64,000 nucleotides of DNA from Mycobacterium spongiae (GTDB taxonomy: Bacteria > Actinomycetota > Actinomycetes > Mycobacteriales > Mycobacteriaceae). Below the pieces are notes generated by a model. That model was not told where the DNA came from and made no database searches. It was given only the letters and a program-made list of their open reading frames with translations. The position numbers were made by a program, and so were the translations under genes. How positions within the stretch are numbered: position 1 is the stretch's first letter; every line of letters begins with the position of its first letter. The stretch covers positions 3,968,001-4,032,000 of the forward strand of contig NZ_CP046600.1 of the NCBI RefSeq assembly GCF_018278905.1. Reading direction: 5' to 3'. Of the stretch, positions 21,928 to 36,362 are shown piece after piece.

Positions 21928-24900
21928 ATGTCTATCGTATTGATCTCCCCGGAAATCGTGGCCGCAGCCGCAGGTGATCTGCGGACCATCGGATCGACCA
22001 TTGACCAGGCCAATGCGGTAGCTGCAGGTTCCACGACGGAGTTGCTGGCCGCCGGCGCCGACGAGGTGTCAACGCGCATTGCCGCGCTGTTCGGCATACA
22101 CGGCCAGGAATATCAAGCTGTCAGTGCGCAGGTTGCGGCCTACCACGAGCGGTTCGTCCAGTCCCTGGGTGCCTCAGCTGCATCGTATGCATCGACCGAG
22201 GCAGCCAGCGCCGAACAAGTTCTGCTGAACCTCATCAATGCGCCAACCCAGGCGCTGCTGGGGCGACCCCTGATCGGCAACGGTGCCAACGCCACGACTC
22301 CCGGCGGCGCCGGCGGAGACGGTGGGCTGCTCTTCGGTAGCGGTGGCAGCGGAGCAGCAGGGGCACCCGGGCAGGCCGGCGGCGCCGGCGGATCTGCGGG
22401 CCTGTGGGGCAACGGCGGCGGTGGTGGCGCGGGCGGGATCGGCGGCGGCACCGGCGGCACCGGCGGCAACGCCGGGTGGTTGTATGGCCGCGGCGGAACT
22501 GGTGGAGCGGGCGGAGCCGGCGGCGGCACTGGCGGGGCCGGCGGGCAAGCATGGCTGTTTGGTCACGGGGGAATCGGCGGGATCGGCGGCATCGGCGGGG
22601 GTACCGGCGGCACTGGCGGGTCGGGCGGCCTGCTGATCGGAGGCGGCGGCCATGGGGGCACCGGCGGGGTTGGCGACGCCGGCGGCGAAGGTGGCACCGG
22701 CGGCCGTGGCGGGAGCCCCGGGTGGCTGTTCGGCGCAGCTGGCGCCGGTGGCGACGGTGGTGCCGGCGGCACCGCTGCCACGTCCGGCACTGCCGGAGGT
22801 ACGGGCGGCCACGGCGGGTCCGGCGGGCGGGGCGGGTTGTTTATGGGCGGTGGTGCCGGCGGTAATGGCGGCGCGGGCGGAGCCGGTCTTGCCGGCACCG
22901 ACGGCGGCGGCGACGGCGCCATCGGCACCAGTGGCGGGACTGGCGGCATCGGCGGCAACGGCGGAGTCGGGGGTCAAGCCGCCCTGATGTTCGGCGCCGG
23001 CGGGACCGGCGGGACTGGCGGGACCGGCGGCGCCGGCGGTGACGGCGGTCTCGGCGGTGACGGCCTGACCGGTGTCGGCGGAGCCGGCGGCACCGGCGGG
23101 ACCGGCGGGTCCGCCGGCCAGGGCGGAGCAGGTGGCGCCCAGAACATATTCAGCCCTAACGGCACCGCCGGTCGTACCGGCAGCGGTGGTGTCGGTGGGG
23201 CTGGTGGGGCCGGCGGGACCGGCGCCGACGGACTTCTCGCGGGTCAAGCCGGCGCTGCCGGTGGTCAGGGCGGCCAAGGCGGCGCCGGCGGAACGGCTGG
23301 CGCCGGTGGCACCAACGGATCCGGAGGCGCCGGCGGGATCGGCGGCACCGGCGGGGCCGGCAAAGCCGGCGACCCGGGTCTGGCCGGCGGCGACGGCGGG
23401 GCCGGCGGGCTCGGCGGCGACGGCGGCAACGCCGGCACCGGCACCGGCACCGACGGCAGTGGTGGGGTCGCCGGCGCCGGCGGCACCGGCGGCACCGGCG
23501 GCGACGGCGGGATCGGGGCGGCCAGCAGCACCGGCGGCGACGGCGGCCTCGGCGGCCAGGGCGGCACCGGCGGCAAAGGCGGCCTCGACACCAGCACCAT
23601 CACCAGCGCCGCCAGCGGCGACGGCGGCTCCGGCGGCCAAGGCGGGACCGGCGGTATCGGCGGAGTCGGCACCGGCGCTCCCGCGGGCACCGGCGGCACC
23701 GGCGGCACCGGCGGCGCCGCCGGCGACGGCGGTATCGCCAACACCGGCGGGGCGGCCGGCAGCACCGGCACCGGCGGCGACGGTGGCGCGGGCGGCGCCG
23801 GCGGGACCGGCGCCGACGGACTTCTCGCGGGTCAAGCCGGCGCTGCCGGTGGTCAGGGCGGCCAAGGCGGCGCCGGCGGAACGGCTGGCGCCGGTGGCAC
23901 CAACGGATCCGGAGGCGCCGGCGGGATCGGCGGCACCGGCGGGGCCGGCAAAGCCGGCGACCCGGGTCTGGCCGGCGGCGACGGCGGGGCCGGCGGGCTC
24001 GGCGGCGACGGCGGCAACGCCGGCACCGGCACCGGCACCGACGGCAGTGGTGGGGTCGCCGGCGCCGGCGGCACCGGCGGCACCGGCGGCGACGGCGGGA
24101 TCGGGGCGGCCAGCAGCACCGGCGGCGACGGCGGCCTCGGCGGCCAGGGCGGCACCGGCGGCAAAGGCGGCCTCGACACCAGCACCATCACCAGCGCCGC
24201 CAGCGGCGACGGCGGCTCCGGCGGCCAAGGCGGGACCGGCGGTATCGGCGGAGTCGGCACCGGCGCTCCCGCGGGCACCGGCGGCACCGGCGGCACCGGC
24301 GGCGCCGCCGGCGACGGCGGTATCGCCAACACGGGCGGGGCGGCCGGCAGCACCGGCACCGGCGGCGACGGTGGCGCGGGCGGCGCCGGCGGGACCGGCG
24401 CCGACGGACTTCTCGCGGGTCAAGCCGGCGCTGCCGGTGGTCAGGGCGGCCAAGGCGGCGCCGGCGGAACGGCTGGCGCCGGTGGCACCAACGGATCCGG
24501 AGGCGCCGGCGGGATCGGCGGCACCGGCGGGGCCGGCAAAGCCGGCGACCCGGGTCTGGCCGGCGGCGACGGCGGGGCCGGCGGGCTCGGCGGCGACGGC
24601 GGCAACGCCGGCACCGGCACCGGCACCGACGGCAGTGGTGGGGTCGCCGGCGCCGGCGGCACCGGCGGCACCGGCGGCGACGGCGGGATCGGGGCGGCCA
24701 GCAGCACCGGCGGCGACGGCGGCCTCGGCGGCCAGGGCGGCACCGGCGGCAAAGGCGGCCTCGACACCAGCACCATCACCAGCGCCGCCAGCGGCGACGG
24801 CGGCTCCGGCGGCCAAGGCGGGACCGGCGGTATCGGCGGAGTCGGCACCGGCGCTCCCGCGGGCACCGGCGGCACCGGCGGCACCGGCGGCGCCGCCGGC

Positions 24901-35100: not shown

Positions 35101-36362
35101 GAGACGGCGGCCTCGCGGCCGATGGCCGCGACGACAACACCAGCGGCAACGGCGGCACTCTCGGCGGTGACGGCGGTTCCGGCGGCAACGGCGGCGACAG
35201 CACCAACGGGCCCGGTGGGAGCGGCGGCAACGGCACCAACGGCGGCAACGGCGGCGACAACGCCGGCGGCGACAGTGCCGGGGGGGACGGCGGGAACGGC
35301 GGTAATGGCGGCGCCAGCACCAACGGGGCGGGCGGGGCAGCCGGCGCCGCCGGCCATGGCGGCAACGCCGGCGACAACGCCGGCCTTGGCAGTAGGGGCG
35401 GGCGTGGCGGTTCCGGCGGTGACGGCGGCGCCAGCACCAACGGGGCAGGCGCCAACGGCGCCACTGGCGGCAACGGCGGCACCAGCGGCGTCAACGCCGG
35501 CTTCGCCAGTTTCGGCGGTAGAGGCGGTTCTGGTGGTGACGGCGGATTCGGTGGCACCTTAGGCGGAGACGGCGGAGACGGCGGCCTCGCCGCTGATGGC
35601 CGCGACGACATCCTCAACGCCGGCGCCAACAGCCTCAGCATCGGCGGTGCCGGCGGTTCCGGCGGCAACGGCGGCGACAGCACCAGCGGGCCCGGTGGGA
35701 AGGGCGGCAACGGCACCAACGGCGGCAACGGCGGCGCCAACGCCGGCGGCTTCAGTACCGGCGGTGACGGCGGTACCGGCGGTGCCGGCGGCGCCAGCAT
35801 CGACGGGGCTGGCGGGAACGGCGGGATCGGCGGGAATGGCGGTGACGGCGGCGCCAACCCGGGCCTAGACAGTCGCGGCGGTGCCGGCGGGAACGGCGGT
35901 GACGGCGGCTTCAGCACCAACGAGGCTGGCGGGAACGGCGGTAACGGCGGTACCGGCGGGGTCGGCGGCGACGACGCCGACCGCGACAGTCTCGGCGGCG
36001 CCGGCGGGAACGGCGGTGCCGGCGGCGCCAGCACCAACGGGGCCGGTGGGAACGGCGGGAACGGCGCTAGCGGCGGTGCCGGCGGCGACAACCCGGACCG
36101 ACTCACTTTCGGTGGTGACGGCGGCGACGGCGGTGCGGGCGGTGCCAGCACTAACGGGGCTGGCGGGAACGGCGGTAACGGCGCCAACGGCGCCAACGGC
36201 GGCATCGGCGGCTTCTCCAGTGTCGGCGGGGACGGCGGGGACGGCGGTGACGGCGGTCCGGGTGGCGGCGGACCCGGCGAGGCCGGCGTCTTGGGCGGAG
36301 GCCCTGCTGGGAGCGCCGGCGGACCCGGCGGTGCAGGCGGCGAGGGCGGGCCCGCGGCCTAG
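31700..36362 (+). CDS. PE_PGRS C-terminal segment of giant locus
   Basis: This frame runs open to the TAG at 36362; a GTG at 32016 is the nearest start-like codon but is almost certainly internal. The product is pure PGRS. It begins with the last 119-residue modules, then less regular GGxGGx (32.3-33.9 kb), then an asparagine-rich part (34.0-36.2 kb) with GGNGGN, STNGAGG and DSTNGPGG motifs. The segment GGFGGT(A/L)GGHGGDGGLA-type occurs three times at about 34.49, 35.07 and 35.55 kb. There is no non-PGRS C-terminal domain; it ends GEGGPAA. Read with the upstream pieces it is the distal part of one gene. Confidence 0.75.

What the first reader, a model, noticed from the sequence alone, without database searches (positions are those of the whole stretch)
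21928..36362. One PE_PGRS locus of about 14.4 kb, among the largest I would expect
A single PE domain is followed by a PGRS tail nominally over 4,700 residues long. It is built from three distinct repeat families: 588-bp units, about 357-bp units and an Asn-rich region. Most PE_PGRS proteins I know are 400-2,000 residues. The modular layering records successive rounds of expansion and would make a very long surface glycine-rich fibre if translated.
Basis: partly seen in the sequence, partly recalled or inferred. Interest (0 to 1): 0.75.

Follow-up and report, generated by a model that had tools for sequence, protein, structure and literature searches.

The report
Giant PE_PGRS gene, broken mid-array
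A mycobacterial surface-protein gene has grown to about 14 kb by copying its own repeats; the sequence as assembled breaks the reading frame inside the repeats, most likely through sequencing error, and the same chromosome holds even larger genes of this kind.

Summary
The locus is real: one PE domain (21928) opens 14.4 kb of PGRS DNA with a 588-bp array (4.5 near-identical copies), a 354-bp array (18 units, one partial) and an Asn-rich tail. The single frame of over 4,700 residues is not in the assembly: the frame from the PE start closes at 29622 (2,564 codons), and the next long clean frame (32016-36362) is in another register. Of 38 frame-breaking indels in the 354-bp array, 33 sit in two adjacent units (30334-31063) and none in the first nine units, which points to an assembly fault rather than gene decay. 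It is not the largest: of six giant PGRS tracts measured in this chromosome it ranks fourth by span (about 26.3, 17.0, 16.4, 14.4, 14.1, 11.9 kb); two of the other five are fully open (5,673 and 3,956 codons), and another species has one of 4,450. Ten giant loci all hold an aromatic-free run of 726-3,837 residues, against 59-148 in six ordinary PE_PGRS. As published models put the aromatic edge of PGRS in the outer membrane, I infer a membrane-anchored part carrying a length-variable stalk. A new variant of PE_PGRS; the stalk is untested.

The parts
21422..21898 (+). Truncated PPE gene remnant (158 aa, half a PPE domain) ending 29 bp before the PE start
   Evidence: PF00823 E 7e-21, profile positions 1-84 of 165
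21928..22260 (+). PE domain and linker: PE at residues 8-9, YASTE at 87-91; the GRPLI motif begins at 112, just after this stretch
   Evidence: PF00934 E 5e-33; motifs by script; solved relatives PE8 and PE25
22258..23208 (+). N-terminal PGRS part with aromatic residues (11 W/F/Y between residues 136 and 408)
   Evidence: PF21526 27.9 bits against cut-off 27
23209..25868 (+). 588-bp tandem array, 4.5 copies; the four full copies compared differ by 0 or 1 base; no aromatic residue
   Evidence: elsewhere in the own genome the unit matches at no more than 73% in the listed rows (760 matches, list cut)
26087..32420 (+). 354-bp (118-aa) tandem array, 18 units, one of them partial
   Evidence: homologous at 74% aa to the array of another PE_PGRS of the same genome
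30334..31063 (.). Error-dense patch: two units holding 33 of the 38 frame-breaking indels of the array
21928..29622 (+). Open frame from the PE start as assembled, 2,564 codons; its last residues are already out of the PGRS register
32016..36362 (+). Open frame without PE domain, 1,448 codons, in another register; holds the end of the array, a non-periodic PGRS part and the tail
34287..36359 (+). Asn-rich PGRS tail, 39-aa (117-bp) period; relatives in several other PGRS tracts of this genome, 75% DNA identity over nearly the whole query and up to 78% over shorter pieces; no separate C-terminal domain
   Evidence: (listed rows)
36558..36642 (-). tRNA-Leu beside the end of the locus; flanks conserved in relatives

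Best explanation
This is a genuine PE_PGRS gene of a giant class. Shown: one PE domain with a type VII secretion motif and GRPLI linker; an N-terminal PGRS part with aromatic residues; then two tandem arrays without any, and an Asn-rich tail. Shown: the frame is broken as assembled, with the breaks concentrated in two units of the array. Inferred, most likely: those breaks are assembly or polishing errors in a repeat too long to be resolved, so the living gene may well run on through the tail, with a true length that is unknown. Inferred, less certain: the protein is exported by ESX-5, the aromatic-bearing N-terminal PGRS part sits on the outer membrane as in the published 'sail' model, and the aromatic-free array projects from it as a stalk whose length changes by in-frame gain and loss of units.
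For: Domain and motifs. Indel clustering: 33 of 38 in 730 of about 6,330 bp, none in the nine units 26087-29270. Three other giant tracts of this genome also have their breaks well inside the array, away from its ends. Intact members of the class exist: 5,673 and 3,956 codons in this genome, with no frame-breaking indel in 36 and 21 array hits, and 4,450 codons in genome G087, with none in 29. Coding constraint in the intact part: ungapped comparison of nine units gives mismatches 490/458/1,131 at codon positions 1/2/3. Architecture: six ordinary PE_PGRS frames (443-722 aa) have 3.05-4.64 aromatics per 100 PGRS residues and longest aromatic-free runs of 59-148; ten giant loci have 0.41-1.81 and runs of 726-3,837. 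An in-frame bias of PE/PPE structural variants in M. tuberculosis and the sail model are published (PMC12817950, one section read; PMC9436101, two sections read).
Against: No reads and no second assembly of this species were available, so the artefact reading is inferred. The largest fully open tract here (17 kb, 30.7 copies at 99%) has no break, so array length alone does not explain the breaks. The patterns differ: in the window the indels are dense and mostly insertions (24 of 35), in the other three tracts sparse and mostly deletions, and in one of these they are spread over about 6 kb. With a different query unit one indel also falls in the otherwise clean stretch. The Asn-rich tail shows no third-position excess (1,043/1,345/1,142; the alignment there is poor).
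Confidence: 0.6

Rival explanations
1. The breaks are real: the gene is frameshifted in this strain, so a PE_PGRS of roughly 2,500 residues is made and the DNA behind it is dead or silent.
For: The assembly says so; 2,564 codons is already longer than published PGRS sizes. Frameshifting structural variants in pe_pgrs genes are published for M. tuberculosis.
Against: 33 of 38 indels lie in two units; a decaying gene should gather them along its whole dead part, yet 32016-36362 has no stop in its Gly-rich register. Three other giant tracts also break well inside the array.
Confidence: 0.17
2. Several genes: the part behind the break is a separate PGRS gene with its own start (GTG 32016 or another).
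For: A 1,448-codon frame is open there.
Against: It begins inside the repeat array and has no Pfam match, PE included; the PE domain is required for secretion (PMC6819658, passages).
Confidence: 0.04
3. Chimeric, expanded or collapsed assembly: reads of near-identical units were placed too often or too seldom, so the locus length itself is wrong by many units.
For: Full copies of the 588-bp unit differ by 0 or 1 base, beyond the reach of short reads; the patch shows that the assembler had trouble.
Against: 354-bp units show 22-73 mismatches to their profile, which anchors much of their order; a comparable intact array exists in another species' genome.
Confidence: 0.15
4. The arrays are mainly a recombination reservoir that feeds variants to other PE_PGRS genes, and the long protein is of no use in itself.
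For: The 354-bp array and the tail have paralogues elsewhere in the genome; gene conversion between PE_PGRS genes is published (PMC12046097, passages).
Against: Outside the locus the listed matches reach only 73% for the 588-bp unit and 78% for the tail piece, so no recent exchange of these was seen; the 354-bp unit was not searched as DNA.
Confidence: 0.04

Closest known systems
PE_PGRS proteins of M. tuberculosis and M. marinum (PE_PGRS33, Wag22 and others)
   Same: PE domain, YxxxD/E motif, GRPLI linker, GGX repeats, no separate C-terminal domain beyond a short end
   Different: Published M. tuberculosis PGRS sizes reach almost 1,800 aa (PMC7550000, passage) or proteins up to 1,400 aa (PMC7028111, passage); here 2,564 codons are open and the Gly-rich tract spans 14.4 kb; much of it is an aromatic-free tandem array
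The 3,956-codon PE_PGRS at G000:C1:981896(+) (L106)
   Same: 354-bp unit, 74% aa identity over 344 residues of array, one PE, aromatic N-terminal part then aromatic-free array
   Different: Array 99% uniform, 21.1 copies, fully open; the window's 588-bp unit matches there at only 68%
The 4,450-codon PE_PGRS in genome G087 (L116, fetched in part)
   Same: 68% aa identity to the window array; a unit shares 29 of 60 non-Gly residues with a window unit
   Different: 345-bp unit, 27.2 copies at 99%, no frame-breaking indel, another species
PPE-MPTR proteins
   Same: Large Gly-rich PE/PPE family proteins; a PPE remnant lies just upstream
   Different: The giant frame has a PE domain and GGX repeats; no PPE domain matched it

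Membership tests
PE_PGRS | N-terminal PE domain with Pro-Glu near the start | tested here: met
   PF00934 113.6 bits, cut-off 22; PE at residues 8-9
[quoted passage not shown]
   YASTE at residue 87; rule from PMC7028111
PE_PGRS | Linker with GRPLI | tested here: met
   GRPLI once, at 112; the review gives 120-124 or 127-131 as usual, so the linker is somewhat short
PE_PGRS | Multiple GGA/GGX repeats | tested here: met
   48-54% Gly in each of the five PGRS modules measured; PF21526 just over its cut-off
PE_PGRS | One continuous reading frame | tested here: not met
   Frame closes at 29622 as assembled; probably an assembly fault. The first 2,564 codons alone meet the other features
PE_PGRS | Straight edge of aromatic and hydrophobic loops (sail model) | tested here: inconclusive
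   Aromatics present at residues 136-408, none at 409-2550; model from PMC9436101; own folds failed
PE_PGRS | ESX-5-dependent export and surface exposure | not testable with these tools
   Needs experiment
PPE-MPTR | N-terminal PPE domain | tested here: not met
   No PF00823 match in either long frame; only the separate upstream remnant has half a PPE domain

The most novel reading that the evidence does not exclude
A class of giant PE_PGRS proteins exists in some mycobacteria in which an ordinary, membrane-bound PGRS 'sail' carries a stalk made of 115-118-aa superunits that has no aromatic residues and can reach several thousand residues (in one tract of this genome the PGRS DNA spans about 26 kb, nominally about 8,700 codons). 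Unit number would then set how far the tail stands off the cell, and would change by in-frame recombination.
Probability: 0.35. Interest if true: 0.75.

Novelty: new variant of a known kind. Interest (0 to 1): 0.5.

Why it matters
PE_PGRS proteins are a large, poorly understood surface family of pathogenic mycobacteria. In the papers seen, PGRS sizes in M. tuberculosis stop near 1,800 residues, and the largest PE/PPE protein identified in an M. marinum proteome was 270.5 kDa. A chromosome with several frames of 2,000-5,700 codons raises testable questions: can a type VII system export such chains, and does a repeat array act as a length-variable surface stalk? It also warns that such genes can look broken in a single assembly when they may not be.

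Tried and rejected
Protein database searches found no PE protein at all, with residues 1-110 (PE domain and start of the linker) as query in the last two; one search gave one weak Planctomycetota hit. Known PE_PGRS of that length should have matched (recalled), and I ran no positive control, so these blanks say nothing about rarity.

A common 39-aa sub-period under all arrays (588, 354 and 348 bp are near multiples of 117) was tested and rejected: it is strong only in the Asn-rich tail (0.38 against a median of 0.14), weak in the 588-bp array (0.29 against 0.17) and absent from the 118-aa array (0.14 against 0.19).

AlphaFold on three array units and on the PE plus N-terminal PGRS part, each from a single sequence, gave no usable model; no fold search was made. 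Codon-position and gap counts from gapped self-BLAST are poor in such DNA; I rely on the ungapped unit comparison. An anchor-word scan for units found only 9 units and was replaced by a profile. In one search the consensus for L112 appears to be one base off, which would explain the one insertion in most of its units; I used only the further indels in its units at 348-1382, together with the overlapping L115. In one search the row for the 588-bp unit was read in the wrong frame and was dropped; there the real units were scored at their best rotation but the shuffled ones were not re-rotated, so the null is too low: only L106 (481 against 361 +- 15) and L116 (419 against 339 +- 14) stand clear of it, and the 348-bp units (349-367 against 324-334, sd 11-13) do not convincingly.

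Absence of the locus from relatives is biased: short-read contigs that would hold a giant PGRS tend to end there, and several of the 80 loci begin shortly before the 146-aa gene, so 0 of 30 with both flanks does not show it is unique.
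Full report
The observation. The window lies at G000:C1:3968001-4032000 of a single-contig Mycobacterium genome of 5.58 Mb. The closest flank relatives by a 146-aa neighbour protein include M. alsense, M. paraense and unnamed Mycobacterium strains at 84-86% identity, so the species has no name here. A PE domain opens the locus at 21928 (PF00934, E 5e-33), and the next PE match in the window is at 57763. The Gly-rich coding pattern runs to 36362. GC rises to 76-83% over this stretch.

The repeats. The 588-bp array runs from 23209 to 25868: at lag 588 there are exact runs of 536, 587 and 947 bases parted by single mismatches, 4.5 copies in all. The second array has a 354-bp unit, 26087 to 32420, 18 units by profile, one of them partial. 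The tail from 34287 has 10.3% Asn against 1.6-4.0% in the other PGRS modules and a 39-aa period.

The frame. The frame from the PE start ends at 29622 after 2,564 codons. Between about 29.5 and 31.7 kb the Gly-rich register moves several times; from 32016 a frame of 1,448 codons is clean in another register. Against a profile of seven intact units, the 18 units hold 38 frame-breaking indels (26 insertions, 12 deletions); 33 lie in the two units at 30334-31063, and none in the nine units at 26087-29270. Of the 38, 25 add or remove a base equal to its neighbour. With a tandem-repeat consensus as query instead, the counts are 35 in all (one of them in a hit before the array begins) and 29 in the two dense units; one then falls in the otherwise clean stretch, near 27.8-28.2 kb, where the frame itself stays open. 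I describe these breaks and do not mend them.

Why an assembly fault is likelier than decay. The DNA on both sides of the patch is clean, including 4.3 kb behind it, which a gene dead since the break need not have kept. Three other giant tracts of the genome also break well inside the array: near 776.1-777.5 kb; in 9 of 39 unit hits spread over 4752.2-4758.5 kb; and near 183.9-186.3 kb. Two giant tracts here and one in genome G087 have none. Against this reading: the longest fully open tract, 17 kb, is not affected; the other three tracts show mostly deletions and fewer indels, not the dense, insertion-rich patch of the window. Published work on M. [quoted passage not shown]

Size in context. 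In this genome 213 candidates of the first look led to 150 scored, all 150 matching the PE family; of those 150, 19 lie in stop-to-stop frames of 1,500 codons or more, 10 in 2,000 or more and 4 in 3,000 or more (counted from the listing; one of the four, 3,183, is partly out of register). By span of the Gly-rich tract from the PE domain, the six that I measured are about 26.3 kb (786 to 760 kb, minus strand), 17.0 kb (3391954, 5,673 codons open), 16.4 kb (4747506), 14.4 kb (this locus), 14.1 kb (192 to 178 kb) and 11.9 kb (981896, 3,956 codons open); ends are read to about 150 bp, and I did not look for every such tract. Each has one PE domain by tblastn in the stretches fetched. Four other complete genomes were searched (listing cut off): in G006 and G028, rich in PE, the longest frames among the rows listed were 1,499 and 1,447 codons; G030 and G022 had only 16 and 13 PE matches. 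G006 showed 1,644 in another search. Published PGRS sizes in M. tuberculosis reach almost 1,800 aa (PMC7550000, passage). The 5,673-codon frame would be a 433-kDa protein from its first start; the largest PE/PPE protein identified in an M. marinum proteome was 270.5 kDa (PMC11395111, passage).

Relatedness of the arrays. With four window units as query over 148 genomes of the genus (11 candidates scored in each genome listed), only the own genome matched at E <= 1e-60 and 7 of 148, the own included, at 1e-20. The nearest are the array of the 3,956-codon gene here (74% aa) and that of the 4,450-codon frame in G087 (68% aa). A unit of the former shares 30 of 60 non-Gly residues with a window unit, the latter 29 of 60, both well above a Gly-fixed null; units of the 348-bp tracts share 17-21 of 60, not convincingly above it (see the limits of that null in Tried and rejected). 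So one superunit type recurs in two genes here and in another species; whether the 348-bp type is the same is open. Elsewhere in the genome the 588-bp unit matches at no more than 73% in the listed rows; the tail piece has relatives at 75% over nearly its whole length and up to 78% over shorter pieces (listed rows).

Setting. On the right lie tRNA-Leu, a 146-aa protein without family match, Ham1, an FAD protein, RNase PH and a cyclic-nucleotide phosphodiesterase, an order I recall from M. tuberculosis Rv1339-Rv1343c. Of 80 loci kept (of 296 that encode a relative), 30 hold both the acyl-CoA dehydrogenase and the 146-aa gene; 0 of 30 have a PE match between them, and the gap is only 1.2-1.4 kb in M. 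innocens, M. ostraviense and M. persicum and shorter still in two others. The HTH gene at 19783-20397 matched none of the loci. Against a clean empty site: two of the 30 (M. angelicum L015, M. szulgai L023) have a weak match to the PPE remnant (34-35%, half its length) in this interval, and M. terramassiliense (L059, without the left flank in its locus) has a PE match (45%) some 1.5 kb before tRNA-Leu. Short-read contigs tend to break at PGRS, so the comparison suggests, no more, that the giant gene is particular to this lineage.

How it may work. In the open frame all aromatic residues lie at positions 55-408, apart from two at the out-of-register end; positions 409-2550 have none. Behind the break, the non-periodic part has 3 and the tail 11. 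The contrast is general: six ordinary PE_PGRS frames of 443-722 aa from this genome, as far as fetched, have 15-22 aromatics, 3.05-4.64 per 100 PGRS residues, and longest aromatic-free runs of 59-148; ten giant loci, nine of this genome and one of G087, have 0.41-1.81 per 100 and runs of 726-3,837. In that call two loci appear twice, L107/L114 includes an out-of-register part (54 aromatics; the other nine have 11-32), L116 is cut at its fetched end, and L004 and the 2,164-codon frame of L111 gave no row (the filter asked for a GRPLI-type motif, a minimum length and a Gly share; which one failed was not looked at). Positions were looked at only in the window, L105 and L106: in each an aromatic-bearing N-terminal part is followed by the array without aromatics. 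Growth thus took place in aromatic-free repeats. The published sail model puts a straight edge rich in Phe and Trp into the outer leaflet (PMC9436101, two sections read). From this I infer that the N-terminal PGRS part anchors the protein and the array stands off as a stalk; a PecA-type protease may remove the PE domain at the surface (PMC6819658, passages). Nothing here tests export, shape or function.

Coding evidence. Among nine intact units, compared without gaps, mismatches at codon positions 1, 2 and 3 are 490, 458 and 1,131, and 798 of 1,456 differing codons are synonymous; by eye most amino-acid changes fall on the X of GGX. That supports past translation of the array, which openness cannot: an antisense frame of 3,370 codons is open as well. 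The tail gave no such signal.

Literature. Searches for long, giant or expanded PE_PGRS and for assembly errors in them listed no paper whose title or start of abstract describes PE_PGRS genes of this size or the stalk build; one search showed only 15 of 167 hits, most unrelated, 12 of 143 and 12 of 33. Full texts were not read beyond the parts named above, and the library holds open-licence papers only.

Noticed in passing
G000:C1 about 760000-786300, minus strand (L112, L115): PGRS tract of about 26 kb behind one PE domain with a long array of a 348-bp unit (37.1 and 24.4 copies in two overlapping stretches); nominally about 8,700 codons, broken near 776-777.5 kb. Larger than the window locus.
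   Followed up: partly
G000:C1:3391954 (+) (L105:446-17455): Fully open PE_PGRS frame of 5,673 codons with 30.7 copies of a 348-bp unit at 99% identity; 433 kDa if made.
   Followed up: partly
window 40490-40852: 57-bp tandem repeat, 6.4 copies at 98%, between the RNase PH gene and the phosphodiesterase gene, overlapping the start of the RNase PH frame as listed; a possible variable-number marker.
   Followed up: no
window 5684-5857: 15-bp tandem repeat, 11.6 copies at 98%, inside an open frame (5079-6392).
   Followed up: no
window 22174-32286, minus strand: Antisense open frame of 3,370 codons over the PGRS, longer than the sense frame and running through the error patch; shows that open length is no evidence of coding here.
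   Followed up: partly
window 21422-21898: Truncated PPE gene directly before the PE_PGRS, in PPE-PE order; weak PPE matches also lie in the same interval in L015 and L023.
   Followed up: no
window 57763-59094 and 59460-61505: Two ordinary PE_PGRS genes in tandem (443 and 681 aa), used as controls.
   Followed up: yes
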